DNA of 64,000 nt from positions 21,622,288 through 21,686,287 of the forward strand of contig NC_092676.1 in assembly GCF_964355755.1 (NCBI RefSeq), written 5' to 3'. Position numbers and translations under genes: made by a program. This DNA comes from Antedon mediterranea (Eukaryota > Echinodermata > Crinoidea > Comatulida > Antedonidae). The notes beneath the pieces were generated by a model. It ran no database searches. It saw nothing but the letters and a program-made list of their open reading frames with translations, and was not told the DNA's origin. Position 1 is the first letter of the stretch, and each line of letters starts with the position of its first letter. This document shows positions 47,090 to 63,565 of this stretch, piece by piece.

Positions 47090-47635
47090 TATTTATTTCT
47101 GTGTTATCATTTTTAGTTACTGATAACCACATTCTGCATTATCAGGATGATCGCGTTTTCGTAGTAATCAACCTCTTTAATTATCTGCTGTATATCGCTG
47201 GACTTTTCAATTAACTTGAACCATTGTCTTTTTGGAAAATTTACATCCCTTTTCCCAGACTTGAACTTGCCCCTTTCTTCAGATTGGGCCTAATACACAC
47301 ACGAACAGTTATTTTTTCCAACGGCATACTATATCGTGAACTTTATCAGAGAGTGGTATTCGAACAGCTTCCACTTTGTTGTAATCAGTTTATGAATCTT
47401 CTGTAACTGGAGTATTAATTCAACTTTATTGAAAGTTTTTGCCACAATAAATGTATACATTGGGGGCCAGGCTTGAAGGCCCTTCTTCCCCCGTTTGACC
47501 TGCATAATGTAAATGATTATCATGATGGTAATCGCCGTCTTTAGAAAACGTATACACTACTGTAAAACGATTGGTCAAACACATAAATATTGTCATTATA
47601 TTTGTACTTTTTAAATACATAATCGCAGAAATCTA
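47090..47635. other. insertion, left part
   Basis: Part of the 1.1-kb stretch that splits R2. Contains ATTCAACTTTATTGAAAGTTTT and CTTGAAGGCCCTTCTTCCCC near 47415-47490, reminiscent of a LINE 3' UTR. No ORF of note. Confidence 0.35.
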
Positions 47636-48150: not shown

Positions 48151-49394
48151 TAATAACTTATGATGATGTACGAACATTTAATGGATTATGATTTTACGAC
48201 TAACTGTAAAAATTGAAAATAAAAAAAAATGTTTGTTTATGGCCATTTGATTGCTATATGAAATTTGATAAATAAATAATTATTTATTTTGTTTCGTTTA
48301 ATTCCTTTACTCCATGTTTAATTCTGAAAATGGTTCCAGCGAACAAAAATCATTTTTCCACCATTAGACTAAAGTGTGCATTAAAAATGAAACTTAATTG
48401 TATGTACGATTCTACATTGCAACGTATTAAATACGTTTTGTTTATGTTGCTTACAAGAATAGGTACTGTACTGTATTTAGATTTAAGTATCGACGCTATC
48501 ATGTGAATCCGATTAGTTAAGTCCAAACGACCTCATCCTTGTCGCACTAAAGCATGCAGTAAAGAACAAAGCTTGATCTTTATTTAGATAACAATGCAAT
48601 GGAGGAAGTACTGTTTTCGATAATAAAAGCCTTTGTGAAAAGATTTCGAATCATTCCCTCGTCGAAGTCCATGGTAACCATGGTAACAGCATGGAGGTAA
48701 ACATGGTAACAGCTGCTGTTCATTGTGCTGTACACCTGCCAGTATGAATCCAAATGGAGGAATTGGGATACAAATGCTGTACGTACAAGTACAGGCAGTA
48801 CATGTACAAGGTAAGTAGGCTACTTTGTTTCCCATGCCAATTAAACATAGGAGTATTCAACGATGACTGATCACTCCGGTCGCCAATCAATCCGTTCGGC
48901 CGCCGTTTAAAACAATATATCTACTTATGAAAAGAAATAAATTGGTATCAAAAGAAAAAGGGTTCCTTTATGAGCATTTTAGGATGAATGAACCGTGTCC
49001 ACTGAGTCTGATCTGTATATGAGTTACAATTATAATTATTATAGTCTGTTACTGTAGGGCCACCTACAGTATTAGCCTATAATATATGATATACGTTACT
49101 AACTACATTTTTTTTGTGAATGTTTATTTATTTGGTAAAAAATATTCTTCATTATCCTAGTCACTGCAAATTAATGTTTTTCTTTTTGAAAATTGAGGTC
49201 AAATTTTGTTTTTCAAATAAGGGTTTCATTCAGCAATGAATGGGCATGGTTAAACCTATCGACTAATCTATTAATCTATTAATTGTACAAAAATGACTTA
49301 CCTCGTCCAGATTAATATCATCGCAGTGGTCCACAGTTTCATTATCGTAAAAACTCTTGTTCTTTATAATTTAATAAAACTATATAGGCTACAG

Positions 49395-49693: not shown

Positions 49694-51310
49694 TTACTCG
49701 ATGTACTTACCGTCTTTAGGGTCGACCTCAGTCGTTAACTGACCCAAGTAGTCGCCCAGGGGAGGGTCCCAAGCCCCGGGTTTTGACACGTAGATTACGC
49801 TGTCGGTATCGTAATACAAGACGCGTTCCTGTAATTTCTCCAACAGCTCGTATAATTTTAAACGCAATGACAACGTTAACCTTTCGGTTAACTTCAACAA
49901 ATTGTTCCTCGTCCTCGTATTTTACCTCCGCCAAATCATCATTAACAAAATGTACCGGGGGTTCGATAAAATATCGTAAACCTCGTTAGGATCTTGCGTA
50001 TATTTAATTCTCGTAAGATTTTCACGCTGACCAAATTGACCCCAAAAACTATTTAGCATTAATTTGGCCAGAGATCGAAGCCCAGGATTGTACGCAATGT
50101 CGTCATGATTCAAGTTGATACCTTCTACGGTTCGATAGTCCGAAATGTATTTTTGTTTATCTTCGGGCGTTTTACACCATTCAGGCCAACCCGAAGCTTC
50201 TTGTTTCAATTTTTAAAATGTGTTAATGTAAGAGGCAAATAGGCCGGACGAGGGAGAATCTGCAGAGTACGCGCTTTTATTTTTAAAGTGCCATACTACG
50301 TGAACTTTACGTATCTCGTACCCAACCTCCACGGCTTTAGCGACCTCGATCGTTGCCCAAGAACCTGTAAATTCTCTATCTGTACCAGAATGATTTCAAG
50401 CGGTTTGTTGTTGAGAATCGACGCATGTTCTACAGAGAGCAAACATTAATTTACCGTTTGATCTATAAGGTAGGACTGGATGGAATACATTTTTAGGCGC
50501 TTCGATAGTACACTTTATCAAACCGAAATATTCGTTGATATCTGTGGACATGTCTTTGCGATCAGCGATTTCAGGATGTCCTACGGGGTAGGTACCGTAT
50601 TTATTTACATAAGGGTACAAGGAAGTATAATCGATGTAATTCATTTCTTCACCCGGTTTTACCTTATAGAACAAACAACTGGCATTAGTCCTCCCACCGA
50701 AAAACGCGTCTCTTGGATTCAAAGTTTGCCTAATGAAAGGAACTTTGGAGACGATAGATTTAATGTTAGGGGCCAACGATTGTTTGATCCGTTTCTATTC
50801 GTGCTCCCAAATTTCGACGTACTCAAAATCTGGAAATTGCTCCTTCAGAAACCGTGTTTTCTTGCTTGTCTTGACAAAGCATTCCAACATGGCTTCGTTA
50901 GTGAAGGGGTTAATGGAATCGGATCTATAACATTCTTGGCACCCGTGGAACAAACAACCCATAAATTCGAAAATAATTTTGTTTTCTAAACATGCGCCGT
51001 CGACAAAGTAAGGCCCAAACATTTTTCCCCTCCATTTCTTGCATGATGGATAAAGAACCCCCCCCCCCCCCCTTTTATGCGACTCGTAGCACAGCCATTC
51101 CATGCTAGAGTGAGAATGGTTAACGGTTGTTAGATACCCTGATGGTGGAAATAAAGCGATGGTGGATGGTTTTAAAAAAATTCTAGAAAAGACGTGATTA
51201 CACGCCGAGGCAATTGTCATTAAATTATTTGAAAAGGGGTCAACGCCTCCGAGTAGTAAAAGTAAGACAACACTTTCTGAGAATATCTACATCGCTGATG
51301 CAGTACTTTA
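49694..51310 (-). pseudogene. polB: protein-primed DNA polymerase B, copy 1, broken
   Basis: Minus strand over at least five frames. 51000-51310: YCISDVDILRKCCLTF, DPFSNNLMTIASACN, then MFGPYFVDGACLENKIIFEF and MGCLFHGCQECY. 50396-50776: MNYIDYTSLYPYVNKYGTYP, polymerase motif A. 49922-50209: LAKLMLNSFWGQFGQREN, motif B. 49694-49900: RVLYYDTDSVIYV, motif C with both catalytic Asp. This is the layout of Polinton/adintovirus-type polymerases (the FHGC block is diagnostic). The exonuclease part is not joined to it. The C-terminus is cut at 49694, next to a LINE. A run of 15 C at 51058-51072 encodes four Gly. Breaks include stops near 50210 and 50395. Confidence 0.9.
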
Positions 51311-51835
51311 CGAGTTCTCTTTGGAGATTGAAAATTTTATTAGTTTCAATTTTCTGATTATACCATTTAATTTAATTTTTTGATCTACGTGATCAATTAG
51401 TAAACTTTCCGATAGATCCTGAACAATATCTATAGCATTATCGCATATATCCATAAGAGAAAGGCTACCGGTCTCGGACATACTTTGACTGACTGGTAAA
51501 TCAAAGTCCAGATCGCCAAACACAAAATCCTCGAGTAATCCCACATCTGGGATAATATCGTCAGATACATTAGCGCGCGATAGACTAACTATAGCGTCAA
51601 CAGCTCTTTGACACTCGATAAATAAACTATCGTTAGCATCAGTTGAGGAAGAAGCGAATTGAGACATTGTAAAATTAAGGTCCTCCATCTCTGAGGCCTT
51701 CTTTTTCAGAAGGTACCCCAATATGGTATCAGGTGTTGTGCTGGATAGCAGTTGTCTTACTATCTGATACTCCGAAATATTTTCGACCATCACCTCTAGC
51801 ACTTCAACCGAAATTGAAACTTTAGTAGATTCCAT
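51308..51835 (-). CDS. gene X1-Y1 fusion, 175 codons
   Basis: ATG at 51835, directly after the shared leader. Residues 1-56 are X (VSISVEVLEVMVENISEYQI, LKKKASEMEDLN), then, in frame, Y from MSQFASSSTDANDSLFIECQ, RAVDAIVSLSRANVSDD and PDVGLLEDFVFGDLDFDL to the end. The X tail (WELVLDWPYPSS in other copies) and the spacer are deleted. This is the only copy in which Y runs on past VSQSM, giving about 55 further helical residues to KFSISKENS. The frame is intact and abuts the DNA polymerase gene. I do not recognise either protein. Confidence 0.6.
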   Translation of the reverse strand: MESTKVSISVEVLEVMVENISEYQIVRQLLSSTTPDTILGYLLKKKASEMEDLNFTMSQFASSSTDANDSLFIECQRAVDAIVSLSRANVSDDIIPDVGLLEDFVFGDLDFDLPVSQSMSETGSLSLMDICDNAIDIVQDLSESLLIDHVDQKIKLNGIIRKLKLIKFSISKENS

Positions 51836-52032
51836 CTATACAACAATACAATAACAATAAATAAAGATAAAAACTACTCACAATATCGTTAAATCAGAAA
51901 AAATCAAACTGTAAACTGGAAAAGTAAGAGGGCTAGTGGGAGAGAGAAACACTGAAACACTAAATTAAAAACAAATTTCAAATAAAGACACCGCAAATTT
52001 TAATCAAAGTATTCAACAAAAACAATTAAGGC

Positions 52033-52235
52033 CTACGAAGATGGAGGGTAGGGCCAGTCTAGGACCAGCTCCCAGTTTAGGTCCTCCATCTCCATAGCCT
52101 TTCTCCGCAACAGATATCACAATGTGGTATCTGTCTTTGTTTTTATTAGTAGCTCTCTCACAACTTTGTAATTTTCGAGACTGCCGACGAGAACTTCCAA
52201 CGCCTCTACTGACACGGTTATTCTGTTGAATCCAT
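52033..52235 (-). pseudogene. gene X2, one-base frameshift at codon 6
   Basis: After the leader, ATGGATTCAACAGAA is followed by a missing A, which creates a TAA. The remainder reads, one frame over, SVEALEVLVG, KVVRELL-like and RRKAMEMEDLNWELVLDWPY, ending in a stop. The DNA holds the palindrome CAGATA-TCAC-AAT-GTGGTATCTG. Its 3' flank (AAATAAAGACACCGCAAATT) is the same as that of X3. Confidence 0.7.
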
Positions 52236-52239
52236 CTAT

Positions 52240-52880
52240 ACAACAATACAATAACAATAATTAAAGAAAAGGGGTCAAAACAATAAAAAAAAATAAATAA
52301 AAATAAATAACAAACAAACGAAAAATATTAAGAATAGAATATAAAGCAACTTACAGAAGCGAATGAATGATTAAAAAAAAAAGAAATCTTCAAACTCCGA
52401 ACAAAAACGGCAAATTATTGGACTAGAGAGAGAGAGGGAGAACTATTAAAATCTATAACAAGAGAGAACTCCTCAATAACCACAAAATACTAAATAAAAT
52501 CTACACCAGGATAACAACAACTGTACTTACATAACAGGAATAATACAGGAGCGCCGAAAAACCAGAATATATTCTTTATAGATCAATGCACTGGGAACTA
52601 CCGTAACAGAGAATGTATAGGCTTACAGATATCAATGAGCTTTGAGATAATAATTTGGATGTAAAGGCGATTTTATAAGATTTATAAAACAATCTTTCGA
52701 TTGTTAAAAGAGGGCCGAAGTGCGCAAAACCCCCCTAGCCTACACAGAAACCCAGAAATACTTTGAACGGTAACAAAAACACTGAAACACTAAATTAAAA
52801 ACAAATTTCAAATAAAGACACCGCAAATTTTAATCATTATTTGTTGAATAAATTAAAAAAATTATTCAACAAATTCAATT
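52240..52880. other. spacer between X copies
   Basis: Leader of X2 on the right-hand side of X2, followed by purine-rich low complexity (AGAGAGAGAGGGAG) and AT-rich sequence. The part at 52780-52880 is the conserved 3' flank of X3. No other gene seen. Confidence 0.4.
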
Positions 52881-52885
52881 AAGGC

Positions 52886-53080
52886 CTACAAAGATGGAGG
52901 GTAGAGCCAGTCTCGGACCAGCTCCCAATTTATCTCCATAGCCTTTCTCCGCAACTGATACCACAATGTAGTATCTGTCTTTGTTTTGAGCAATAGTTCT
53001 CTAACAATTGTATATGTTTCGATGTTCTCGACAAGAACTTCCAATGCTTCTACGGATACGTTTATTTCTGCTGAATCCAT
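52886..53080 (-). CDS. gene X3, intact, 64 codons
   Basis: ATG at 53080 directly follows the leader TTGTATTGTTGTATAG. MDSAEINVSVEALEVLVENI, YTIVRELLLKTKTDTTLWYQ, RRKAMEINWELVRDWLYPPS and a stop. Compared with other copies it lacks three residues (EDL of MEMEDLNWEL). Predicted mainly helical, acidic at the N-terminus, with a basic patch (LRRK) in the middle and a short Trp/Pro tail. No signal peptide or membrane segment. No family recognised. This is one of the two X copies free of frame damage without a fusion. Confidence 0.6.
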   Translation of the reverse strand: MDSAEINVSVEALEVLVENIETYTIVRELLLKTKTDTTLWYQLRRKAMEINWELVRDWLYPPSL

Positions 53081-53199
53081 CTATACAACAATACAATAAC
53101 AATAATTAAAGAAGGGGAGGGGGAATTACAGTAAAAAAAAAAAAACAGAAAAATACTAAGAATAAATTGTCTTTGGAAATGACAATAACTTGGTAATTT

Positions 53200-53342
53200 G
53201 GTAATCCTCGAGTAATCCCACATCTGGGATATTATCGTCAGATACATTAGCGCGATAGATTAACTTTAGGGTCAACAGCTCTTGGACATTCTATAAATAA
53301 ACTATTGTTAGAATCAGTTGATGTTGAAGCGTATTGAGACAT
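53200..53342 (-). pseudogene. gene Y2, frameshifted
   Basis: MSQYASTSTDSNNSLFIECP then RAVDPKVNLSR and a stop caused by a two-base loss in the GCGCGC run that other Y copies have after CTATC. The following bases still read SDDNIPDVG-like in the next frame. Located between X4 and X3, as expected for the alternating X-Y order. A short stretch at 53160-53200 on its downstream side resembles the sequence just before the polymerase at 63.1 kb. Confidence 0.65.
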
Positions 53343-53382
53343 TGCAAAAAGTGTTATTCCAAATTAAAAGAACAGGAGATGG

Positions 53383-53560
53383 TTAATTAGAAGAGGGGTA
53401 CGGAAAACCTAAAACCAGCTCCCAATTCATGTCCTCCATCTCCATGGCCTTTCTTTGTAATATATACCACAATGTGGTATCTGTCGTGGGCAATAACAGA
53501 TCCCTCACTACTTTGTACTCTGCTATGTTCCCTATGAGAACCTCTAGCTCTCCCACGGTT
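53383..53560 (-). pseudogene. gene X4, start lost
   Basis: Reads VGELEVLIGNIAEYKVVRDL, TTDTTLWYILQRKAMEMEDM and NWELVLGFPYPSS with a stop. The first codons and the leader are replaced by AT-rich sequence (TTATAACC...). Otherwise unbroken, and it differs from other copies by several replacements, so it is an older or faster-changing copy. Confidence 0.6.
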
Positions 53561-53840
53561 ATAAAAAAGACAAGAAAAAAAAAGCAACTAACAATACTGA
53601 CTTGTTACAAACAGAAAAAAAAACGAATTAGTGGGCAAGACCGAGAGAAAAGGAGAACTATTCAAAACCTGGGAAAAAACGATACAAAAAACTATAACAA
53701 GAGAGAACTCCTCAATAACAACAAAAATACCAAATAAATAAAACCACCTCTTCTTCTTCTTTTTTAATTCAATTAGTGATGACTGCACAAAAAATATTTG
53801 CTTAAAAAAAATCAACGGCAAATTATTGAAATAAAGGTGG

Positions 53841-54301
53841 CTAGATGTGATGTGTTTGTATGATAGTCATCTCCTCTCTATGCTTTGTGATGTGCAAAGT
53901 TCCTCCTTGTGTTGTGTTTGCGTTTATTGATCGCGCGCGTTGTGTTGTTGAATTTGTTTTTTGAAATTTTGATGACTTTATTGTGATGATGCTGGTAATC
54001 TTTTTAAGATGACGCTGCAATGTTGTGTTAATAGTGGGTGTGGTTTTAGTGATGGAGGAGGTGATGCCGCTGGATAAGTTAGTGATGATGGTAATGACAC
54101 TCTTTTTAAGATGACGCTGCAACGTTTTGTTAATGATGGAGGTGTTGGTGATTGATGGGGTGATGAAGCTGAAGATGAAGGGAATGGTGATAATGCCGGG
54201 TGTGGTGTTGTTAGAGGAGGAGCTGGTCCTAGGAGTGATGCTTGTGGTGGTGCTTGAGCCGGTGATGGTGCTGGTGATCGTTTCTTTTTTCCTTCTGCCA
54301 T
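53841..54301 (-). CDS. Pro/Ser-rich small ORF
   Basis: ATG at 54301: MAEGKKKRSPAPSPAQAPPQ, then Pro/Ser-rich sequence to LPASSQ, 107 codons (stop at 53978). An overlapping frame (to 53841) is Thr/Ile/Lys-rich. The DNA contains two copies of a block giving CSVILKR, so part of it is an internal duplication. The basic start followed by a Pro-rich tail would suit a disordered nucleic-acid-binding protein. It may also be low-complexity chance. Same strand as its neighbours. Confidence 0.35.
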
Positions 54302-54377
54302 TCTTATTCCTTTTCTCTTATTTTTGTATGACTTTTTGCTGTAACTTACAGTCTAAACCAAAACAAAAATAAAGAAT

Positions 54378-54482
54378 TTAATTCGTCGTTCCCACGTGTA
54401 ACCTTTTGTAGCTTGTATTTTCCTCCTGCAACTTCTTTATTTGCTCTTCCATGACAAACAAATTAATTTGTGCGTGTGCCAT
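54378..54482 (-). CDS. 34-codon coiled-coil ORF
   Basis: ATG at 54482: MAHAQINLFVMEEQIKKLQE then ENTSYKRLHVGTTN and a stop. Short amphipathic helix. It lies between X5 and the Pro-rich ORF on the same strand and is not part of the X pattern. Too short to be certain. Confidence 0.3.
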   Translation of the reverse strand: MAHAQINLFVMEEQIKKLQEENTSYKRLHVGTTN

Positions 54483-54534
54483 TTTGCTCAAATAAATAAA
54501 TGAAAATACCTGCGCGGTGATTCTAAATTTATAT

Positions 54535-54660
54535 GAAAATATCTCACCAGCCTCACCCCCAGGTCCTCCATCTTGGCGATTTTCTTTTTTAACACATACC
54601 ACAATGTGGTATCTGGTGTTGCGCACAACACAACAGCTTCCTAATAAATAAGTAAATGTT
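54535..54660 (-). pseudogene. gene X5, diverged fragment
   Basis: One frame reads ATPDTTLWYVLKKKIAKMED then LGVRLVRYFHINLE. The core (TPDTTLWYxLKKKxxxMEDL) is clearly X, with the same CCACATTGTGG palindrome centre. The first part and the WELVLDW tail are altered. The X frame is out of phase with the ATG at 54665. Confidence 0.55.
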
Positions 54661-54953
54661 GACATCCACTCTTTTGTTGCCGTGTTCAGGTAGCTATAGA
54701 ATTTAAGTTGTTTTAATATTTACGGTGGACAGATTATCTCGATCGTTGAAAACTTGTGTGCATACATTCTGTACCCTTTAATTCAGATAATATTGAACTA
54801 ACATACATGTTACACATGTACTTTAACTATCCACTGACCTATGTCACCATTTTAATTCTTTCTGCTAAATCTGCCTCGGTTAAAGTGAACTGTTATTGAA
54901 TACTTGTTCTTCCATTCCTTTCAAAGGAAATTCAATCGCCAAAGCGCCAATCT

Positions 54954-55157
54954 CTAAGCTTGAATTATTCCTTTATTTCCACACGTCCATCTGCCAAGAA
55001 ATGGTCTGTAAATTGTTTCATCAGACTTAATTTGGCTAAAAAACCTTTCTTCTATGTTACAATGTTCACCCATCCTTTCCCACTTACAACTAAACGTTTT
55101 TGCTTTATGATTATCATCAATTTTTAGTCCGTCTGCCTGAGTAAGATTTACTTTCAA
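54954..55157 (-). CDS. unrecognised small ORF, 67 codons
   Basis: ATG at 55157: MKVNLTQADGLKIDDNHKAK, CKWERMGEHCNIEERFFSQI and YRPFLGRWTCGNKGIIQA, then a stop. Balanced composition with four Cys. A diverged tandem copy of the underlying DNA lies at about 55180-55350, where the frame is broken. Same strand as X, Y and Z. No family recognised. It could belong to the PolB-linked element. Confidence 0.35.
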   Translation of the reverse strand: MKVNLTQADGLKIDDNHKAKTFSCKWERMGEHCNIEERFFSQIKSDETIYRPFLGRWTCGNKGIIQA

Positions 55158-55350
55158 TCAACTTGGCGTCAAAACCCTAATTCTGTAAAACTGTCTTCTC
55201 TTACAATTTACATCCATCCTTTAAGTTTATCCTACTTTCAACTACAATATGAGCAATCACGTTATTCTTTTAATTATAATCACTTTTTAGTCCGTCTGCT
55301 AATTAAACGCCAAGTTACGTTTTATTGTTTCAATCAACATGGCGCCAACA
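55000..55350. repeat. ~175-bp tandem duplication, diverged
   Basis: Two units share TTTTTAGTCCGTCTGC, TTTCAATCAAC-TGGCG and an ACATCCATCCTTT / ACCCATCCTTTCC block. The unit at left carries the 67-codon minus ORF; the unit at right ends at the plus-strand ATG of 55339. Confidence 0.55.
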
Positions 55351-55521
55351 CCTTCATTTGTTAAACATATCTTCAACAAATTGTCCCCGTTATGTCGCTC
55401 CTCCTACTCTTTAATTATTGTTCTCTTACTATTGCATTTGATATTACAACCACATGGAATTTCTTTTGTCTGCATTGAATATGTTTCAAACCTTGTTGAT
55501 TACAGTACTCTATGTCATTAA
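55339..55521 (+). CDS. possible plus-strand ORF with membrane segment
   Basis: CAACATGGCG context, 60 codons. MAPTPSFVKHIFNKL, then a hydrophobic segment SYSLIIVLLLLHLIL (residues about 22-36). Could be a first exon or chance. It is the only plus-strand candidate in 49.7-64 kb apart from the LINE piece. Confidence 0.2.
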   Translation: MAPTPSFVKHIFNKLSPLCRSSYSLIIVLLLLHLILQPHGISFVCIEYVSNLVDYSTLCH

Positions 55522-55529
55522 TGTATATG

Positions 55530-57025
55530 AATGTTGAAAATATAATCATTTACATTATCTCATGCATTAAAAATAGTTCTAAAGTGAATACATCTGACTG
55601 ACAGACCATCTGTACGGTGTAATATTGCACAATGTGTGAAATGCATCTTACTAAGAATGTGACCATTAACACGATCTCCACTGCGTGTTTGTTTAGTAAA
55701 TGTTTACCGATGATTTAAAGCAATATTATTGGACATGAATGTATCGCATTTGATAAAGTTCAACAAAAATTTACAAAAATAAGTTACGAACTAATTGGTA
55801 CCTTGAACACTTTCAAAACAATACTGAATATTGAACAAAACAAGACCAAGTTTCAGATGGATGAACGATCGAAGCACCAGTGCGCCGAGAATCAGTCATA
55901 AATTTGACTTATGTTTAAGATATCCTCGATCATATTTTGGTTCTGGTGATAGAAAAATCTTAGTAACTGAATGGAGTAGCCACCTGTGATCTACACAATG
56001 CCAAGAAAACATTCCTGTGTTTCCGTCCGAAGTTTTAGAACATGGAGTGAAGTTGTATTGAAGTATTACTCAAATCTCCACAGTTGGTGCTAAATGGATG
56101 TAATGAACAGTAATGAAGTAAGCATTGTAACCGTATTTCTGTATTGTACATTTGTGGTACCGAGCAGCATAACTAACAGCAAGATTTCGAAAAGTTAAAA
56201 TTGTTCGCATCTCCGATGGCCTAACAATCAACCAACCGGAGGATTGAAGAAACAAATAACTACACAGAAAAGTAATAATGAACAGCATATATAATTTCAT
56301 AACAAATCATAGAAAACTGAACATTTTCCATTGTACTTATTATTAGAAGCAGCGAAACTTGTAAAATATAAAAATGGGAAAATTATGTTCAAGATTAGTA
56401 CCTTGAAACCAGAAACTAGATGCTACACTACACTTGCAAAGGAAGCACACCGCTCTGCTAACACGCGACTTACAGGAATAAAGATAAGGAACAAGTTACT
56501 CTAGCCTAGCAAGTGTATGGATAATAAATTTTGTTAACGCTCAACGTCAAGTATACACTATACTACCACAATGATAACCGAACACACCATTAAAGAATAT
56601 TATTTCTTGGTAAACATTACTAAACAAGTCTTCGTGGAGGTCAATAGTTAAAATTCTACTTTCGAACTATACAATGCTATGTTAATTCATAAAGAAATAC
56701 GTTTTAATTTTAAATAAATCTCAATCCCGTTCTATTAAACTCTTCGATGCGTTTATTATTTCTATTAAATGAACGGACTGGGTCATTTCAGATACACATT
56801 ACTATCTTACAAAATTTATACCACCAGCACCACCTAAATCCCGCCCAGAACTCGTTTTCAATCATTCTTTGTTGGAAATGATTCTATACAGTACTTTTAA
56901 TAGGTTTGAAACTAAAATTCTTATGCGAAATTATATTACTGTAAAGGTTATATCATACTGCTTTCCTATTTAATAAAGATTAACCCATGATTTTTTTATT
57001 TTTCGTTCTGGCCACGTCCAGTAGA
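55530..57025. other. AT-rich stretch, mostly empty
   Basis: The only candidate is a minus ORF at 56070-56300: ATG, MKLYMLFIITFLCSYLFLQS (signal-peptide-like), then a Arg/Tyr-rich part to PTVEI. Its frame is intact and the start is a real ATG, so it may be a secreted small protein or first exon; confidence is low. The rest has no signal. Confidence 0.3.
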
Positions 57026-57028
57026 AAA

Positions 57029-57235
57029 CTAATTTTTTTCAATTAAATGGTCCGCCAATTTTCCACTCTGTCTTTCCATGCTTTTTGCTACCTCCGTTGT
57101 CACTCGTGTCTCTGTGAACTCTTTCTCCACTATCGTGATTGCTGCTTTTTCTGCATACGTTTCGACGCATGTTCTATACATATCAACAACAGGAAAGACT
57201 GATTGTGTTTGGTGTTTTGTACTTTCTCTCCCCAT
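57029..57235 (-). CDS. unrecognised ORF U, 68 codons
   Basis: ATG at 57235: MGRESTKHQTQSVFPVVDMY, RTCVETYAEKAAITIVEKEF, TETRVTTEVAKSMERQ, ending HLIEKN and a stop. Charged and mostly helical. It starts 20 bases after the stop of ORF T, in the tight spacing of a viral-type gene cluster. No family recognised. Confidence 0.45.
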   Translation of the reverse strand: MGRESTKHQTQSVFPVVDMYRTCVETYAEKAAITIVEKEFTETRVTTEVAKSMERQSGKLADHLIEKN

Positions 57236-57254
57236 TTCCTTCCTCAGCCATTGG

Positions 57255-57440
57255 TTATAACTTATCAGTGTTATCTAGCATTTGCACACAAGTTTTCTTA
57301 ACGTTGCAATCACAGTAGGTTATCCTCTCCAAATTGTATTCCACATTACCGTGTACAAATTCTTTCAAACATTCTAAATCTGGGGTTTGACTTTTAATAT
57401 TGTGTATACCTCTAGATAAATTGAGTAGCTGATCGAACAT
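57255..57440 (-). CDS. unrecognised ORF T, 61 codons, interrupted by the minisatellite
   Basis: ATG at 57440, but the frame is open further upstream through VGDNVRK, which matches the minisatellite unit. It continues FDQLLNLSRGIHNIKSQTPD, LKEFVHGNVEYNLE, TYCDCNVKKTCVQM and stops. The upstream sequence across the minisatellite (58960-59000) ends in a frame with QKVGDNVRI. I infer one gene split by expansion of a repeat at this point. Confidence 0.45.
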   Translation of the reverse strand: MFDQLLNLSRGIHNIKSQTPDLECLKEFVHGNVEYNLERITYCDCNVKKTCVQMLDNTDKL

Positions 57441-57449
57441 TTTTCTTAC

Positions 57450-58975
57450 ATTGTCCCCAACATTGCTAGTCTTACGTTGTCCCCAACATTGCTAGTCTTA
57501 CGTTGTCCCCAACATTGCTAGTCTTACGTTGTCGCCAACATTGCTATTCTTACGTTGTCCCCAACATTGCTAGTCTTACGTTGTCCCCAACATTGCTAGT
57601 CTTACGTTGTCCCCAACAGTGCTAGTCTTACGTTGTCCCCAACATTGCTATTCTTACGTTGTCCCCAACATTGCTATTCTTACGTTGTCCCCAACAGTGC
57701 TATTATTACGTTGTCCCCAACATTGCTATTATTACGTTGTCCCCAACATTGCTAGTCTTACGTTGTCCCCAACATTGCTAGTCTTACGTTGTCCCCAACA
57801 TTGCTAGTCTTACGTTGTCCCCAACATTGCTATTCTTACGTTGTCCCCAACATTGCTATTCTTACGTTGTCCCCAACATTGCTATTCTTACGTTGTCCCC
57901 AACATTGCTAGTCTTACGTTGTCGCCAACATTGCTATTCTTACGTTGTCGCCAACATTGCTATTCTTACGTTGTCGCCAACATTGCTATTCTTACGTTGT
58001 CCCCAACATTGCTAGTCTTACGTTGTCCCCAACATTTCTAGTCTTACGTTGTCCCCAACATTGCTAGTCTTACGTTGTCCCCAACAGTGCTAGTCTTACG
58101 TTGTCCCCAACAGTGCTATTCTTACGTTGTCCCCAACAGTGCTTTTCTTACGTTGTCCCCAACAGTGCTAGTCTTACGTTGTCCCCAACATTGCTAGTCT
58201 TACGTTGTCCCCAACATTGCTAGTCTTACGTTGTCCCCAACATTGCTAGTCTTACGTTGTCCCCAACATTGCTAGTCTTACGTTGTCCCCAACATTGCTA
58301 GTCTTACGTTGTCCCCAACATTGCTAGTCTTACGTTGTCCCCAACATTGCTAGTCTTACGTTGTCGCCAACATAGCTATTCTTACGTTGTCGCCAACATA
58401 GCTATTCTTACGTTGTCCCCAACATTGCTAGTCTTACGTTGTCCCCAACATTGCTAGTCTTACGTTGTCCCCAACAGTGCTATTCTTACGTTGTCCCCAA
58501 CATTGCTATTCTTACGTTGTCCCCAACATTGCTAGTCTTACGTTGTCCCCAACATTGCTAGTCTTACGTTGTCCCCAACAGTGCTATTCTTACGTTGTCC
58601 CCAACATTGCTATTCTTACGTTGTCCCCAACATTGCTATTCTTACGTTGTCCCCAACATTGCTATTCTTACGTTGTCCCCAACATTGCTATTCTTACGTT
58701 GTCCCCAACATTGCTAGTCTTACGTTGTCCCCAACATTGCTAGTCTTACGTTGTCCCCAACAGTGCTAGTCTTACGTTGTCCCCAACAGTGCTAGTCTTA
58801 CGTTGTCCCCAACAGTGCTATTCTTACGTTGTCCCCAACAGTGCTATTCTTACGTTGTCCCCAACAGTGCTATTCTTACGTTGTCCCCAACAGTGCTATT
58901 CTTACGTTGTCCCCAACAGTGCTATTCTTACGTTGTCCCAACATTCCTATTCTTACGTTGTCTCCAACTTTTTGG
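57450..58975 (+). repeat. 26-bp minisatellite, about 58 copies
   Basis: Unit CTTACGTTGTCCCCAACA plus TTGCTAGT. Variants at three sites: CCCC/CGCC after GT, CATT/CAGT and CTAGT/CTATT, in runs. The right end has the AGT variant in a row (58745-58930). Because 26 is not a multiple of 3 and no phase has a stop on the plus strand, long plus ORFs appear (SPTVLFLRCPQHCYSYVVPN); these are artefacts of the repeat. On the minus strand the unit has stops. Confidence 0.95.
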
Positions 58976-58987
58976 AATAAAGGACCT

Positions 58988-59134
58988 TCATATGTCTGCG
59001 AAAATAACGTCAGACGTCAGATGATCCCTCCGTGCAAAAGGGATAGAGATAGGTGTATCCAACCCTTCAGCCTGTATGACTATTCGAATTATGTCGTCGA
59101 CATGCACGTTAATGCAAAGATTATCGGACGACAT
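58988..59134 (-). CDS. unrecognised ORF V, 48 codons
   Basis: ATG at 59134, overlapping the end of ORF W by 14 bases (CATGTCGTCCGATAA). MSSDNLCINVHVDDIIRIVI, QAEGLDTPISIPFARRDHLT, SDVIFADI, stop at 58988, 13 bases from the minisatellite. Balanced composition. In another frame the last part continues into the minisatellite unit, so V may be the start of the gene whose end is ORF T, with a frameshift. Function unknown. Confidence 0.4.
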   Translation of the reverse strand: MSSDNLCINVHVDDIIRIVIQAEGLDTPISIPFARRDHLTSDVIFADI

Positions 59135-59300
59135 GCTCGAAAATTCTATACAGAATGGGCAGAAACACCTCTAAACTTAAATGTTCTACATTAAAAAAAT
59201 TAACTGCAAAATCGTTAATAGTAGCGTTAAAACGCTGGTTAAATCTATCAGCTAATCGAATAATTTTGCAGAAATGACTTAAATCTACCTTCGTCCAGTC
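59121..59300 (-). pseudogene. ORF W, C-terminal part of an unknown gene
   Basis: In a frame overlapping the end of Z: WTKVDLSHFCKIIRLADRFN, QRFNATINDFAVNFFN, LSLEVFLPILYRIFEHVV, stop at 59121. Protein-like and helical. Its 5' part is cut at about 59305, where the Z/Y-derived sequence begins, so only the end remains. It overlaps ORF V in virus-like fashion. Not recognised. Confidence 0.4.
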
Positions 59301-60006
59301 CGATAAATAAAATATCAGTTGTGGTTGAAGCGTAATGAGAAACCATATCGGCTTCTCTTTTTTGCCATTTTTCAATGTTTGCTTTTGACTCCAAGTGCAA
59401 TTTTTCTATAACCTGTTGGTATTTAATTTCTCTTTGCTCAGATTTGGCAATATGGTTTTGAAATTCTGTTAACATCGTATCGAATCGTGTTTGCAAAGTA
59501 GTCAGTTTTGTTTCGGTTTCACGTAAATCTTTGCGTGCCTGCTCCAGTTGGCTTACGAGTTGTTGAATGCCAATTTTGGATGAGGGTAGATTATTGACAT
59601 CACTGATAAAACCTCTCGTCGATGGATACTTGTCCAATATAGCGTCTTCTATGATTCTTTTTCGCTTGTACGTACGTTTTTCCTTTTCTTGTAATACCGT
59701 CATTTGATCTGATACGCCAAGAATGTTTACTATGGCAGTCCAATCACTGCTTGTATGTGATTCGATCGCTCGTCCCACAAATCGAGCAAATAGTGTTTTG
59801 TTGATAGAATTGGTTTTGGCAATATTCGCAATGGGGGTGGCAACACCATTATTTTTCTCCTGTGTGGAAAAGGCACCGTTCAAAGTTATGGGATACTTCA
59901 TGTCCGCACCGCAGTGATAGGTTCGTTTTTCTTTTTTATCCAATAAGAATATACGGTTGTTGTTGGTCACCGTCATTTGCAACTCTTCCAGTTTGTCGTT
60001 GTCCAA
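59248..60006 (-). pseudogene. gene Z1, coiled-coil protein
   Basis: About 250 codons open. The first ATG in frame is at residue 11 (MTVTNNNRIFLLDKKEKRTY); upstream the frame runs into the end of Y3, so the true start is lost. Then YPITLNGAFSTQEKNNGVAT, LFARFVGRAIESHTSSDWTA, KRKRIIEDAILDKYPSTRGF, and from about residue 150 a long heptad region (QLVSQLEQARKDLRETETKL, LTEFQNHIAKSEQREIKY, VIEKLHLESK). The end, VSHYASTTTDILFI, is the start of Y, after which the sequence switches to another element. No family recognised; the coiled coil suggests a structural or scaffolding role. Confidence 0.5.
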
Positions 60007-60134
60007 TACACATCTGGGATATTATCGTCAGATACATTAGCGCGCGATAGACTAACTATAGCGTCAACAGCTCTTTGACATTCGATAAATAAACTATCGT
60101 TAGAGTCAGTTGAGGTTGCAGCGAATTTAGACAT
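60003..60134 (-). pseudogene. gene Y3, truncated and fused to Z1
   Basis: MSKFAATSTDSNDSLFIECQ, RAVDAIVSLSRANVSDDNIP, then DV leads straight into the 5' end of Z1 at CCAGATGTGTATTGG in another frame. The ATG is preceded by TTTTGCA as in Y2. The upstream block with CCAAT lies at 60218-60425. Confidence 0.6.
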
Positions 60135-60217
60135 TGCAAAACTTGGACAAAAATCATTACCGGAACTTGAAAGAATTAGTAAATGAGTAATTAATTAAAA
60201 CATATCACGATATTATT

Positions 60218-60425
60218 AAACCTTCCCGTGACGATTACGATTGGTCAATACATTCTTTAATAGTAATAAGGAAATTCCGCCCATAACAGTGACCATTAGA
60301 TTTAGCCAGGAAACGGATTAATTAATAACAGTAATAAACCTTCCCGTGACGATTACGATTGGTCAGACATTCTTTAATAATTAGGAAACTCCATCCATAA
60401 CAGTGACCATTAGATTTATCCTTCA
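60218..60425 (-). promoter_or_regulatory. duplicated upstream block of Y3 (CCAAT, Sp1-like, kappaB-like words)
   Basis: Two copies, 60218-60305 and 60337-60425. Minus strand: AATGGTCACTGTTATGG, GGCGGAATTTCC (or GGAGTTTCC), AAAGAATGT, TGACCAATCGTAATCGTCAC. GACCAATCG is a CCAAT box; GGAATTTCC has kappaB-site form. A diverged third copy precedes Y4 (61360-61450). Position 90-290 bp upstream of the Y start suits a promoter, but this is inference from repetition. Confidence 0.45.
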
Positions 60426-60545
60426 ACCGTATATACAGGGTCGTATCTGCCTTAGTACTTGCCAGTAGATGTCTAACCACTTTATACGTCTCAATGTTCT
60501 CAATGAGAACCTCTAGTACTTCTATGGCTACGGTAACTTCGAGTT
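60415..60545 (-). pseudogene. gene X8, fragment
   Basis: VTVAIEVLEVLIENIETYKV, VRHLLASTKADTTLYIRLKD, then the frame enters the Y upstream block. Start and end are missing. The wording (VAIEVLEVLIENIET, RHLLASTK) is shared with X10 only, so the two are sister copies. Confidence 0.55.
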
Positions 60546-60599
60546 GGAAACGAAAACGGCGAATTAGTGTACTAGCATAACCTGTTCAATTTGGTTGGA

Positions 60600-60720
60600 G
60601 CCATAGAATGCCAAGACCTTGTTGCCGGGTTAATTTGGCCAGAGATCGAAGCCCAGGATTGTACGCAATGTCGTCCTGATTCAATCTTCTTCGGTTCGAT
60701 AGTCCGAAATTGAAATAGGT
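60600..60720 (-). pseudogene. polB: polymerase B sliver
   Basis: FNFGLSNRRRLNQDDIAYNP then GLRSLAKL, 40 residues, the stretch before polymerase motif B as in copies 1 and 2. Joined to the cut end of X6 upstream (ELEDCWRW) at the same point where copy 2 has the sequence FNFGLSNRRRLNQDD, so a common rearranged ancestor is likely. Confidence 0.65.
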
Positions 60721-60855
60721 TTACCACCGCCAGCAATCCTCCAACTCCATAGCCTTTCTCCGCAACAGATACCACAGTGTGGTATCTCTTTTTGTTTTAA
60801 ACAGAAGCTCTCTCAAAATTTTATAGTTCTCGACGTTTATTGATGCTGAATCCAT
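60721..60855 (-). pseudogene. gene X6, internally deleted
   Basis: Leader, then ATG at 60855: MDSASINVENYKILRELLFK, TKRDTTLWYLLRRK, AMELED, and then a foreign tail CWRW and stop from polymerase sequence. The segment SVEALEVLVENIE is missing. 44 codons open. It lies directly downstream of X7. Confidence 0.6.
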
Positions 60856-60880
60856 CTATACAACAATACAATAACAGTAA

Positions 60881-60928
60881 TTATCCTTCCAACGCCTCTA
60901 CTGACACTGTTATTTCTGTTGAATCCAT
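60881..60928 (-). pseudogene. gene X7, first 15 codons only
   Basis: Leader, ATG at 60928, MDSTEITVSVEALEG and a stop. Its end runs into the leader of X6, so a deletion joined the start of one copy to the leader of the next. Confidence 0.65.
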
Positions 60929-60998
60929 CTATACAACAATACAATAACAATAATTAAAGAAGGGGGGTCTATTCTCTTCTCCAAGTACACTCATAAAT

Positions 60999-61235
60999 TT
61001 ATTTTCTACTGTGGATTCGACAAGTCGCTTCAAAAACACTTTGACTAACTGTCAAATCAAAGTCCTGGTCGTTAAAAACAAAATCCTCCAGTAACCCAAC
61101 ATCGGGGATATTACCGTCAGTTACAATAGAGTTTATATTAGACCGCGATAGGCTAACTATAGCTTCAACTGCTCTTTGGCATTCGCTAAACAAACTATCG
61201 TTAGAATCGGATGAAGTGGAAGCGTTATGAGCCAT
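60999..61235 (-). CDS. gene Y4, intact, 78 codons
   Basis: ATG at 61235: MAHNASTSSDSNDSLFSECQ, RAVEAIVSLSRSNINSIVTD, IPDVGLLEDFVFNDQDFDLT and VSQSVFEATCRIHSRK, stop. It has a five-residue insertion (NSIVT) and a C-terminus different from Y1 after VSQS. Acidic, with a Ser/Thr/Asn-rich start. No signal or membrane segment, no recognised family. X9 lies upstream and X7 downstream. A block like the one upstream of Y3 lies at 61360-61450. Confidence 0.6.
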   Translation of the reverse strand: MAHNASTSSDSNDSLFSECQRAVEAIVSLSRSNINSIVTDGNIPDVGLLEDFVFNDQDFDLTVSQSVFEATCRIHSRK

Positions 61236-61359
61236 TATGAAAATCAGTAACACATCTTGGAAAATCATTAAACGAATAAAGAATTAAAACAACTTACGCT
61301 GTTTTTATACTGCCCCAATGATGCTAATTAAATTTAAATAAAAAAAAGGCACTTAAAAC

Positions 61360-61450
61360 TTCCTTTAGGAAATGTGTCCACTATTAAGATTGGTCAAAAA
61401 ACCTTTAAATAATTAGGACGACCCTCCCATAAGAGTGACCATTCGATTAA
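61360..61450 (-). promoter_or_regulatory. diverged upstream block of Y4
   Basis: Minus strand: AATGGTCACTCTTATGGGAG ... TTTGACCAATCTTAATAGTG. Shares GGTCACT, TATGGG and GACCAATC with the blocks upstream of Y3. Confidence 0.4.
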
Positions 61451-61643
61451 GCCTTCGGCCAAGTCGAAAACTCGGAGCCAGGAAACTTATTAATAACAGT
61501 TGGGAGAATCGTTAAGGATTAATCAAGGACTTGCAATGGTCAAACAATACATACAGGCTAGAAAAATGATTAACAATACCTATTCGAATAATACTGAAAC
61601 ACTAAATTAAAAAACAAATTAGTAGGAAATCCTCGAGAAAATT

Positions 61644-61880
61644 TTATTTAGAAACCAACACAATAATTACAGAAAAGTATAAAGAAGATGGATACGGCCA
61701 GTTGAGGACCAGCTCCCAATTAAGGTCCTCCATCTCAGAGGCCTTCTTTTTCAGAAGGTACCCCAATATGGTATCAGGTGTTGTGCTGGATAGCAGTTGT
61801 CTTACTATCTGATACTCCGAAATATTTTCGACCATCACCTCTAGCACTCCCACCGAAATTGATACTTTAATAGATTCCAT
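61644..61880 (-). CDS. gene X9, intact with extended tail, 78 codons
   Basis: ATG at 61880 after a leader with one change (GTAGAGATGG instead of GTATAGATGG). MESIKVSISVGVLEVMVENI, YQIVRQLLSSTTPDTILGYL, LKKKASEMEDLNWELVLNWP, YPSS, then LYFSVIIVLVSK because the usual stop is lost. Sister to X1 (both have SEYQIVRQLLSSTTPDTILGY). Directly upstream is a piece of polymerase (CRTFVSYDHQCY). Confidence 0.6.
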   Translation of the reverse strand: MESIKVSISVGVLEVMVENISEYQIVRQLLSSTTPDTILGYLLKKKASEMEDLNWELVLNWPYPSSLYFSVIIVLVSK

Positions 61881-61904
61881 CTCTACAACAATACAATAAC
61901 AATA

Positions 61905-61985
61905 AACATCGGTTCCATGTAGCATTGATGATCGTATGAAACGAAAGTCCTACAAATTCTACAAAATCGATACTTTAATTGATTC
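61905..61985 (-). pseudogene. polB: polymerase B zinc-region sliver
   Basis: FCRICRTFVSYDHQCYMEP in one frame, matching the Cys-rich turn before the exonuclease I motif of the fragment at 47.85 kb. Fused to the X9 leader. About 25 residues. Confidence 0.6.
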
Positions 61986-62075
61986 TACAAATAAATTAGA
62001 CAATAGCTAATCGATGAGAAGAAATTTATTTTAATGATTCACCAAACATAACCGTAAGGAACTGTGCGATAATTT

Positions 62076-63170
62076 TAGTCTTTAATAGATGCTTTGTTGA
62101 CTATCTTACGTGTTTTTGGCTTGCGCGTTATGCGATTCTTCTCAGCCGTCTTAATTGTATCGGGACCAAAACCCCTTACCATATTGGAGACGGTGTCAAA
62201 GTTAATTTTCTGAGCGTTTGTAAAATTAAGGGCAAACCCCTTTCTTTACACACGGTCTTCCCTGTGTCCAATTTATATGCGTAATTCTTAGGCCCACCAG
62301 AAACGAAGGACTCGATGAATTTACCATCTTTAGGATCGACCTCGGTCGTTAACTGACCCAAATAGTCGCCCATGGGAGGGTCCCAAGCACCGGGTACGTA
62401 GATTGCGCTGTCGGTATCGTAATACAGGACATGCTTCTGTAATTGCTCCAACAACTCGTATAATTTAAGTGCGGCAATAGCAACTTCAACAATTTGTTGA
62501 AGTTGCTATTGCATGAACGGTTATCCGAGCGTTCGATAAAATATCGTAAACTTCGTTAAGATCTTGCGTATATTTAATTCTCGTGAGATTTTCACGATGA
62601 TCAAATTTACTCCAAAAACTATTGAGCATTTAATTTGTCGTCCTGATTCAATCTTCTTCGGTTCGATAGTCCGAAATTGAAATGTTTATCACCGCCAGCA
62701 ATAATATCTGGTACGATACAGTTTTTGTTTTTGGTACTCGAGCACGAAATAGCTATCGTAGCCCTGGAGGTTGTGAGCGATACACGTATTATTATGATTA
62801 TATTTGTACTCAGTAAATACGTAATAGCAACGTGAAGTGTGACAATAATGCGGCCCGCATTCACATTGCCGTCTTCGAACATGCACACGAGCAGATCGTG
62901 TAATGACTTAGCGCTGCGACATTTCACCTTATCAACTTGATTCTTGATTGCTTCCGGATATTCACCTTCAAATTTTTCCTCGTTTTCCAAATAATTCTAA
63001 GCCAAAACGATCAATTTATCAACATCAAAACCACCATGATGGTAAAGATAAATCTGCTTCTTTCGATAATCGTCGCTAAAAATTACAGAATATAAATTGT
63101 CTTTGAAAAGGGCAATAATTTGGTATTTTTGGCAATTTTGATGCATGTTTGCTCCCTAACGCCCAATCTC
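62076..63170 (-). pseudogene. polB: protein-primed DNA polymerase B, copy 2, broken
   Basis: Minus strand. 62990-63170: LLPFSKTIYIL, VIFSDDYRKKQIYLYHHGG, FDVDKLIVLA. 62619-62990: YPEAIKNQVDKVKCRSAKSL, EDGNVNAGRIIVTLH, then HNLQGYDSYFVLEYQKQKLY (exonuclease II region, in a shifted frame). About 62550-62640: MLNSFWSKFDHRENLTRIKY, motif B. 62176-62454: HVLYYDTDSAIYV, motif C, and GGPKNYAYKLDTGKT. To 62076: the C-terminus with AQKINFDTVSNMVRGFG. Exonuclease I and motif A regions are deleted. It supplies the C-terminus missing from copy 1. Confidence 0.85.
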
Positions 63171-63204
63171 TTAGTAAATGAAGGGCGTAAACTGTAATTA
63201 AGAC

Positions 63205-63407
63205 CTATGAAGATGAAGGGCGGGGCCAGTCCAAGACCAACTCCCAGTTCAGGTCCTCCATCTCCATTGCCTTTCTCCGCAACAGATACCACAATGTCGT
63301 ATCTGTCTTAGTACTTGCCAGTAGATGTCTAACCACTTTACACGTCTCAATGTTCTCAATGAGAACCTCTAGTACTTCTATGGCTACGGTAATTTGGCTG
63401 AATCCAT
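63205..63407 (-). pseudogene. gene X10, start frameshifted
   Basis: ATGGATTCAGCCAAA is out of frame with ITVAIEVLEVLIENIETCKV, VRHLLASTKTDTTLWYLLRR and KAMEMEDLNWELVLDWPRPS that follows. In the preserved frame it is open upstream through the end of Y5, so a Y-X read-through of 129 codons exists. The leader is shortened (TTGTATATATGG). The polymerase gene copy 2 starts just downstream. Confidence 0.65.
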
Positions 63408-63414
63408 ATATACA

Positions 63415-63565
63415 ATACACAAAATCTTTGAGTAACCTCACATTTGGGATGTTATCGTCAGATAAATTAGCGCGCGATAGATTAACTATAGCATCAACAG
63501 CTCTTTGACATTCGATAAATAAAATATCGTTAGTCAGTTGTGGTTGAAGCGTAATGAGAAACCAT
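63415..63565 (-). pseudogene. gene Y5, frameshifted, fused to Z2
   Basis: The ATG at 63565 is in frame with the end of Z2 (MVSHYASTTTD, stop). After a missing few bases it goes on as ILFIECQRAVDAIVNLSRAN, LSDDNIPNVRLLKDFVY. The Z-Y overlap means that the last residues of Z are the first of Y. Confidence 0.6.

What the first reader, a model, noticed from the sequence alone, without database searches (positions are those of the whole stretch)
51308..63565. Alternating array of two unrecognised small genes, X and Y, next to DNA polymerase B
Seen directly: ten copies of X (X1 51835, X2 52235, X3 53080, X4 53560, X5 54660, X7 60928, X6 60855, X8 60545, X9 61880, X10 63407) and five of Y (51667, 53342, 60134, 61235, 63565), all minus strand, in largely alternating order. 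X is about 64 codons with core DTTLWYLLRRKAMEMEDLNW and tail WPYPSS; Y starts MSQFASTSTDSNDSLFIECQ. Copies differ in sequence and several are intact, so the ORFs were probably under selection. I recognise neither family. Repeated duplication of a small gene pair beside a replicative polymerase recalls gene-family expansion in large DNA viruses; that comparison is inference.
Basis: partly seen in the sequence, partly recalled or inferred. Interest (0 to 1): 0.9.

Follow-up and report, generated by a model that had tools for sequence, protein, structure and literature searches.

The report
Maverick virus graveyard with spliced polymerase
The "array of two small genes" is a pile of broken pieces of Maverick (Polinton) virus-like elements: Y is the first exon of their DNA polymerase gene, which is interrupted by introns although a published survey of related elements found none, and X is a small protein gene of theirs that was kept by selection but matches nothing in the collections searched.

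Summary
In detail: ten X and five Y copies, all on the minus strand. The reading changes. The window's own genome (354 Mb) holds the source elements elsewhere. A 16.3-kb copy on contig C9 is a Maverick/Polinton: AGTAGT...ACTACT ends, 6-bp target duplication, terminal repeats of 410-440 bp, rve+chromo integrase, adenain-like protease, A32-like ATPase and PolB. One end reads terminal repeat, X, Y, PolB. The window holds about 25 fragments of that end plus one PC4 piece, all in one orientation, with no terminal repeat or capsid gene detected.

Y is coding exon 1 of PolB, not a gene of its own. In 26 of 26 testable copies it ends at a GT donor; a 28-29-codon exon 2 and the PolB frame follow across introns of variable length, phase 0. 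A survey of vertebrate Mavericks reports intronless genes. Exon 2 was not found in the window, so its Ys are orphans.

X is a separate accessory gene (63-67 codons in seven intact copies), with saturated synonymous change but constrained protein and a 26-nt leader 85-96% identical between groups. The array is fossil; the spliced polymerase and X are new features of a known kind.

The parts
51308..51835 (-). X1 (51674-51835) truncated and fused in frame to Y1 (ppolb exon 1, 51374-51667); the ORF tail runs out of frame into PolB
52036..52235 (-). X2, frameshift after the ATG and one TGA; keeps the element's leader region (up to 52775)
52886..53080 (-). X3, intact 64-aa X gene with the 26-nt leader element
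53201..53342 (-). Y2, orphaned and frameshifted ppolb exon 1
53383..53562 (-). X4, open frame without ATG
54536..54634 (-). X5, fragment of the DTTLWY region
60009..60134 (-). Y3, 5' part of ppolb exon 1, joined to Z
60412..60540 (-). X8, truncated
60721..60855 (-). X6, internal deletion, 3' end joined to a PolB piece
60887..60928 (-). X7, first 14 codons only
60999..61235 (-). Y4, ppolb exon 1 of another lineage (61027-61494 resembles the L038/L051/L047 type, 77-79%)
61644..61880 (-). X9, whole X gene, 78 codons
63205..63399 (-). X10, open, no ATG in frame, joined behind Y5
63415..63534 (-). Y5, ppolb exon 1 fragment joined behind Z
49697..51368 (-). PolB fragment (residues about 592-1172 of the C9 PolB), broken
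49266..49364 (-). decayed fragment of the start of ppolb exon 3
   Evidence: E 8e-6
47651..48144 (-). PolB fragments (residues 323-458 and 237-265)
58970..59298 (-). start of ppolb exon 3 (PolB residues 5-104)
60631..60684 (-). PolB fragment (residues 1021-1038)
61907..61969 (-). PolB fragment (residues 366-386) directly before X9
62042..63146 (-). PolB fragments (residues 1128-1273, 1039-1077, 467-514, 219-255)
47167..47380 (-). decayed PC4-type fragment; in the C9 element PC4 lies at the other end
51836..51861 (-). 26-nt leader element before the X1 ATG; the 23-mer overlapping it also lies at 52232, 53077, 60852, 60925 and 61877

Best explanation
The region is a graveyard of Maverick (Polinton) elements. 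Their ppolb-side end reads: terminal repeat, X, Y, PolB, all on one strand. Decayed copies of that end, from several X lineages, lie in the same orientation and were cut and joined, so X and Y seem to alternate.

[quoted passage not shown] The start codon lies in Y; a short exon 2 and the PolB body are spliced on in phase 0. Y therefore forms the extreme N-terminus of the polymerase.

X is a separate accessory gene just inside the terminal repeat. It probably has a non-coding first exon and an intron ending exactly before its ATG (the 26-nt element). It makes a 63-67-residue helical protein, most likely a small host-directed or regulatory factor.

Shown here: the elements, their termini, the splice signals and phases, selection on X and Y. 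Inferred: that splicing happens in RNA, the X leader intron, X's role. In the window all this is fossil.
For: Elements in the same genome carry X, Y, PolB in this order. The C9 copy: rve 7e-13 and Chromo 2e-8, PC4 3e-23, Peptidase_C5 1.7e-4, Pox_A32 6.9e-6, DNA_pol_B_2 8e-45. Ends AGTAGT/ACTACT with TSD ATCGTT (C9) and GGGACC (C3). Inverted terminal repeats in C9, 88% over 444 columns.

Y as exon 1: Y1 has 52 matches on nine contigs; 29 span residue 14 or earlier to 95 or later, 26 of them without a stop, one being Y1 itself. Of 31 loci taken, 26 could be tested: GT donor 26/26, AG before exon 2 25/26, GT after exon 2 26/26, AG before exon 3 23/23 where its start was placed; intron 1 is 75-296 nt. 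Both introns occur in all three length classes modulo 3; 24 of the 26 sequences are distinct; read-through of intron 1 meets a stop within 6-23 codons in 26/26. In the four copies looked at (L031, L024, L040, L036) the PolB frame has no ATG before codon 101 of exon 3.

Selection. X intact in seven places outside the window. Leader. No exon 2 at E below 0.1 in the window.
Against: No RNA evidence was available. One of 26 copies (L045) lacks the acceptor AG before exon 2. Exon 2 shows no coding constraint between the two main groups (pS 0.23, pN 0.21-0.23 over 28 codons), and aligned intron identity (0.78-0.81) is not lower than exon identity (0.72-0.78); the introns are T-rich and gapped, but this is not the usual intron-exon contrast. 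Exon 3 of L034 is decayed (pN about 0.5), and the exon-3 frames of L040 and L036 stop at codons 149 and 211.

The window has no detected terminal repeat, capsid, protease or ATPase piece, so decay of whole insertions does not by itself explain why this end prevails. X was found upstream of Y in only 9 of 31 loci taken (6 intact, 3 fragments), so it is not essential. X's leader donor is present in the C8/C9/C3 and L038/L043/L051 copies and X2, but not in the other window copies. The Z segments are unexplained.
Confidence: 0.88

Rival explanations
1. Local gene-family expansion: a host or viral X-Y pair duplicated in place and was kept by selection here.
Confidence: 0.06
2. The locus works as a small-RNA (piRNA) source: a trap that collects Maverick fragments in one orientation and silences the live elements.
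For: About 26 fragments (10 X, 5 Y, about 10 PolB, 1 PC4), all on the minus strand; several lineages in one place; more fragments beyond the window in L015 and L016.
Against: No small-RNA data; one orientation also follows from tandem duplication, which did happen.
Confidence: 0.2
3. Y is a short stand-alone protein (about 101 aa in the C9 copy, ending in intron 1) as well as, or instead of, exon 1.
For: The unspliced frame ends within 6-23 codons of the donor in 26 of 26 copies, so intron retention would give such a protein.
Against: Conserved donor in 26 of 26 and exon 2 in phase; PolB would be left without an ATG for 100 codons or more in the four copies looked at.
Confidence: 0.1
4. The 26-nt element before X is a promoter or start-site element rather than a splice acceptor.
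For: It is more conserved than a splice acceptor needs: 0.85-1.00 identity in 55 of 55 pairs of 11 copies (0.85-0.96 between groups) against 0.16-0.70 in the preceding 44 nt, the C8-C3 pair (1.00) aside (X6 and the C9 copy were not put into this comparison).
Against: It ends in an AG at the ATG, and a GTAAGT or GTGAGT donor lies about 100-110 nt upstream in both intact groups, counted by eye.
Confidence: 0.25

Closest known systems
Maverick/Polinton elements (vertebrate Mavericks, PMC8097293; passages seen)
   Same: AGT-AGT...ACT-ACT ends, 6-bp TSD, size (16.3 kb; mean there 16.9 kb), terminal repeats about 400 bp, rve integrase, ppolb, ATPase, protease, two modules pointing to the centre, accessory regions at both ends
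   Different: ppolb has two introns and a 5' coding exon; that paper reports intact elements with intronless ORFs and says this agrees with Kapitonov and Jurka 2006 (not seen). X has no match; one accessory protein has two PC4 domains.
Adintoviruses (as described in PMC11071296; passages seen)
   Same: PolB and rve integrase with C-terminal chromodomain; small unrecognised accessory ORFs (their 'Oncoid' class is defined by short motifs only)
   Different: OTU domain and hexon relationship not tested here; no mention of PolB splicing in the passages seen
Adenovirus E2B (pTP and Pol)
   Same: Recalled, not tested: a short 5' exon supplies the start codon of the replication proteins by splicing
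   Different: In adenovirids the terminal protein is separate from the polymerase (abstract passage of PMC11071308); here one PolB ORF follows

Membership tests
Maverick/Polinton | 6-bp target site duplication and (AGT)2//(ACT)2 termini | tested here: met
   C9: ATCGTT; C3: GGGACC; both AGTAGT/ACTACT
Maverick/Polinton | terminal inverted repeats | tested here: met
   C9: L014 950-1392 against L021 5290-4880, 88%; C3 also paired; none found in the window
Maverick/Polinton | retrovirus-like integrase | tested here: met
   rve 7.2e-13, Chromo 1.9e-8
Maverick/Polinton | protein-primed-type DNA polymerase B | tested here: met
   DNA_pol_B_2 8.3e-45, 1273-aa ORF in C9; 6.5e-11 for a window piece
Maverick/Polinton | packaging ATPase and adenain-like protease | tested here: met
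   Pox_A32 6.9e-6 and Peptidase_C5 1.7e-4, both little above Pfam cut-offs
Maverick/Polinton | double jelly-roll major capsid and minor capsid protein | tested here: inconclusive
   440-aa and 278-aa ORFs in the expected places, no Pfam match above cut-off; no structure modelled
Maverick/Polinton | intronless genes (as reported for intact vertebrate elements) | tested here: not met
   donor, exon 2 and phase conserved in 26 of 26 testable copies. A reported trait, not a defining one.
Adintovirus | integrase with chromodomain | tested here: met
Adintovirus | PolB with OTU-like N-terminal domain; hexon recognisable by BLASTp | not tested
   no adintovirus reference was compared
Gene-family expansion in a large DNA virus | many paralogues in one viral genome | tested here: not met
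   one X and one Y in the C9, C3 and C8 elements

The most novel reading that the evidence does not exclude
These Mavericks run an adenovirus-style, splicing-dependent programme: the start exon of the protein-primed polymerase (Y) is joined by regulated splicing to the PolB body, and the terminal X gene, with a strongly conserved splice-acceptor or leader element, is an early accessory regulator. Splicing of the replication gene would then predate or parallel the separation of terminal protein and polymerase in adenoviruses. The C7 array would preserve extinct X lineages as a record of turnover of that accessory gene.
Probability: 0.25. Interest if true: 0.75.

Novelty: new variant of a known kind. 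Interest (0 to 1): 0.5.

Why it matters
Maverick genes are described as intronless in the vertebrate survey seen here. A three-exon ppolb conserved in about two dozen copies implies expression through the host's splicing machinery, supplies the polymerase start codon that ORF-based annotation would miss, and makes the question of how adenoviruses came to splice and separate their terminal protein and polymerase directly testable. It also warns that small 'orphan genes' beside a viral polymerase can be its first exons. X adds a selected but unrecognised accessory protein with an unusually conserved leader.

Tried and rejected
X, Y and Z as matches of known families: Pfam (nothing above cut-off), PHROGs (for Z phrog_1499 of unknown function, 3e-7), 5.8 billion proteins with the X alignment and with Z (Y was not searched there), IMG/VR contigs with X, Y, Z and a PolB piece and with the leader 23-mer, PDB by fold for X (best E 3.5) and by sequence for X. 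None gave a relative of X or Y. These collections probably hold few animals, so this is weak evidence. The Y model was poor (pLDDT 60.8) and was not searched.

Considered and dropped: a Bcl-2 BH1-like reading of X's 'NWELV' (recalled resemblance only); LxCxE motifs in Y (none on reading); GC-box, CCAAT and E2F-like sites before Y (seen by eye in C9, not tested); special constraint on the introns. In one search one PolB comparison rested on 5 codons and is not used.

Not achieved: genome-wide counts of the divergent X, of Z and of the leader element (genome search answered only); host identity; the viral-structure search for X.
Full report
WHAT IS THERE. The window is part of a 354-Mb genome in 18 contigs (window = C7:21622288-21686287). 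The host was not identified; LINE- and BEL/Pao-like reading frames (recalled resemblance) point to an animal. On the minus strand between 47 and 64 kb lie ten X, five Y, about ten PolB pieces (14 tblastn alignments, merged) and one PC4 piece. Every one is on the minus strand. X3 and X9 are whole (X9 with 12 extra residues), X1 is fused to Y1, X4 and X10 are open without an ATG, and the other five are broken. None of the Ys is complete.

WHERE IT COMES FROM. Searching the genome with X3 gave 14 matches, including whole X frames on contigs C3, C8 and C9. Around them the reading frames are those of a Maverick/Polinton. On C9, from one end to the other: terminal repeat, a 183-aa ORF, a protein with two PC4 domains, rve+chromo integrase, a 278-aa ORF where a minor capsid or penton protein is expected, a 128-aa ORF, the capsid-like ORF (440 aa, seen whole in the C3 copy), adenain-like protease, 256-aa and 132-aa ORFs, A32-like ATPase, a 134-aa ORF, PolB (1273 aa), Y, X, terminal repeat. 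The C9 element spans 2198084-2214388 (16.3 kb), with AGTAGT...ACTACT ends and a 6-bp duplication ATCGTT; the C3 copy has GGGACC. The C3 copy has lost the start of Y and has a broken ATPase frame; the C8 copy has a Copia-like insertion in PolB. Apart from the PC4 piece, the window's pieces come from the stretch between the PolB 3' end and the X leader; no terminal repeat and no virion gene was detected. In protein the PolB pieces are 70-95% and the X copies 32-63% identical to those of C9.

Y IS AN EXON. Y1 has 52 matches on nine contigs; 29 span from residue 14 or earlier to 95 or later, and 26 of these have no stop (Y1 itself is one). I took about 3.6 kb around 31 places. In 26 of the 31 both the Y end and the next block could be placed; left out were L041 and L050 (no exon 2 found), L051 and L052 (Y match cut short) and L053 (decayed). 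In 26 of 26 the Y frame ends at a GT donor (25 GTAAGT, one GTAGGT). A 28- or 29-codon block, YG(V/I)GAHTKCL...IE or IDE, begins after an AG in 25 of 26 (not in L045) and ends at a GT in 26 of 26. In 23 of 23 where its start was placed, the PolB frame begins after an AG. The matched frames make all junctions phase 0. Intron 1 is 75-296 nt; both introns fall in all three classes modulo 3 (6/8/12 and 5/8/10), while exon 2 changes length by one whole codon. Two pairs of the 26 are identical, leaving 24 distinct sequences. Reading through intron 1 meets a stop within 6-23 codons. In four copies looked at, the PolB frame has no ATG in its first 100 codons after the exon-3 acceptor. Exons 1 and 3 show coding constraint between the two main groups (L031-L040: exon 1 pS 0.71, pN 0.17; exon 3 start pS 0.61, pN 0.16); exon 2 does not (pS 0.23, pN 0.21 over 28 codons), and L034 has a decayed exon 3. 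So Y supplies the start codon and N-terminus of the polymerase. No exon 2 was found in the window: its Ys are orphaned first exons.

X IS A GENE OF ITS OWN. In five X pairs (X3-X9, X3-X4, X9-X4, X9-X10, X10-X4) synonymous sites are near saturation (pS 0.66-0.86) while pN is 0.19-0.27; pN/pS is 0.28-0.31 with bootstrap limits below 0.5. Closer pairs: X2-X10 0.24 [0.12-0.42], X3-X2 0.27 [0.12-0.57], X3-X10 0.41 [0.22-0.74]. Very recent pairs carry no usable signal: X1-X9 0.20 [0-1.06], X10-X8 1.33 [0.13-2.48]. The constraint therefore belongs to the past of live elements, not to this array. Seven intact X frames with ATG were found outside the window: C8, C9, C3, C11 (L018), L038, L043 and L051, of 63-67 codons; L038, L043 and L051 are 35-38% identical to the C8 X. 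Of the 31 Y loci, 9 have an X match upstream at E up to 0.01 (6 intact, 3 fragments) and 22 have none in the stretch taken; in seven of those an ORF183 frame or fragment lies there instead (L036, L037, L044, L045, L047, L048, L049; by eye). X is thus a dispensable accessory gene. AlphaFold gives three helices (pLDDT 79.6, 8 sequences); Foldseek and a profile search find no relative in the PDB.

THE LEADER ELEMENT. The 26 nt before the X ATG, close to (A/T)TTATTGTTATTGTATTGTTGTATAG, are 85-100% identical in all 55 pairs of 11 copies (85-96% between groups). The 44 nt before them are 16-70% identical (the C8-C3 pair, 100%, aside); X6 and the C9 copy were not included. X proteins of groups that carry it are 35-63% identical to the C8 X. 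A GTAAGT or GTGAGT donor lies about 100-110 nt upstream in the two intact groups and in X2, but not in the other window copies; an AATAAA follows the stop in the C8, C9 and C3 copies and was not seen within 110 nt in L038, L043 and L051 (by eye). The most likely reading is a leader intron ending at AG|ATG. The degree of conservation exceeds what an acceptor needs and stays unexplained.

HOW THE ARRAY AROSE. X lineages differ to saturation, three usable PolB pairs by pS 0.19-0.36, and some pairs (X1-X9, X10-X8, Z-Z, Y3-Y5) by 0.10 or less (a fourth PolB comparison rested on 5 codons and is dropped). This fits the arrival of several related elements at different times, followed by local duplication (59.3-59.7 and 63.5-64.0 kb, 96% alike) and deletion joins such as X1-Y1, X6-PolB and Y3-Z (read). 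Alternation then follows from the element's own order X-Y-PolB on one strand. A similar X-Y-X-Y-X stretch lies at about C10:24.6895-24.6905 Mb. Why this end accumulated, in one orientation and without terminal repeats, is open; a piRNA-cluster role is possible and untested.

COMPARISON. By termini, duplication and gene set this is a Maverick/Polinton. The chromodomain integrase also fits adintoviruses, whose other defining features were not tested. In PMC8097293 (passages seen) intact vertebrate Mavericks are said to have intronless ORFs, in agreement with Kapitonov and Jurka 2006 (not seen); accessory regions flank the core there, as X does here. Searches on introns or splicing in Maverick/Polinton genes (listings) and passages of PMC8097293, PMC9683012, PMC3671162, PMC11071308, PMC11071296, PMC12220804 and PMC12721341 showed no report of a spliced ppolb. 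PMC12220804 reports self-splicing group I introns in some polinton-like viruses, which is a different thing; PMC12721341 found no GT-AG splice sites in its elements. Other listed papers were not opened, and most subscription papers are not in that library. That polintons carry a terminal-protein domain fused to pPolB, and that in adenovirids the terminal protein is separate, is from the abstract passage of PMC11071308 and was not tested here; that adenovirus messages share a short spliced 5' exon is recalled.

VERDICT. New are the three-exon ppolb with Y as its start exon, and X with its leader element.

Noticed in passing
59248-60006 and 63513-63959 (-); L015:5456-6157: Z, a coiled-coil-like reading frame lying directly before or inside the Y-PolB junction; its end resembles the Y start (VSHYASTTTD...). 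No database relative except a weak PHROG of unknown function; among L009-L054 a clear match only in L015.
   Followed up: partly
57444-58968: 26-bp tandem repeat, 58.7 copies, beside a weak, divergent Y-like stretch at 57330-57446 (E 0.06).
   Followed up: no
45916-46799 and 48163-49248: Imperfect direct duplication, 73-95% identical in pieces.
   Followed up: no
62474-62512: 39-bp palindrome, 97% self-complementary, inside a decayed PolB fragment.
   Followed up: no
L009:4297-6878: Copia-like pol frames (recalled resemblance) inserted in the PolB of the C8 element.
   Followed up: no
L021:5410-5961 and 6098-7033: Accessory genes at the other end of the C9 element: a 183-aa protein with a VIIISDDEE stretch (SUMO-interaction-like, recalled) and a protein with two PC4 coactivator domains.
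   Followed up: partly
L047: Here ORF183 and a PC4 piece lie upstream of Y on the same strand, where X lies in others: the accessory ends have been rearranged between elements.
   Followed up: partly
L041 (about C10:24.6895-24.6905 Mb): A second short alternating X-Y-X-Y-X stretch.
   Followed up: partly
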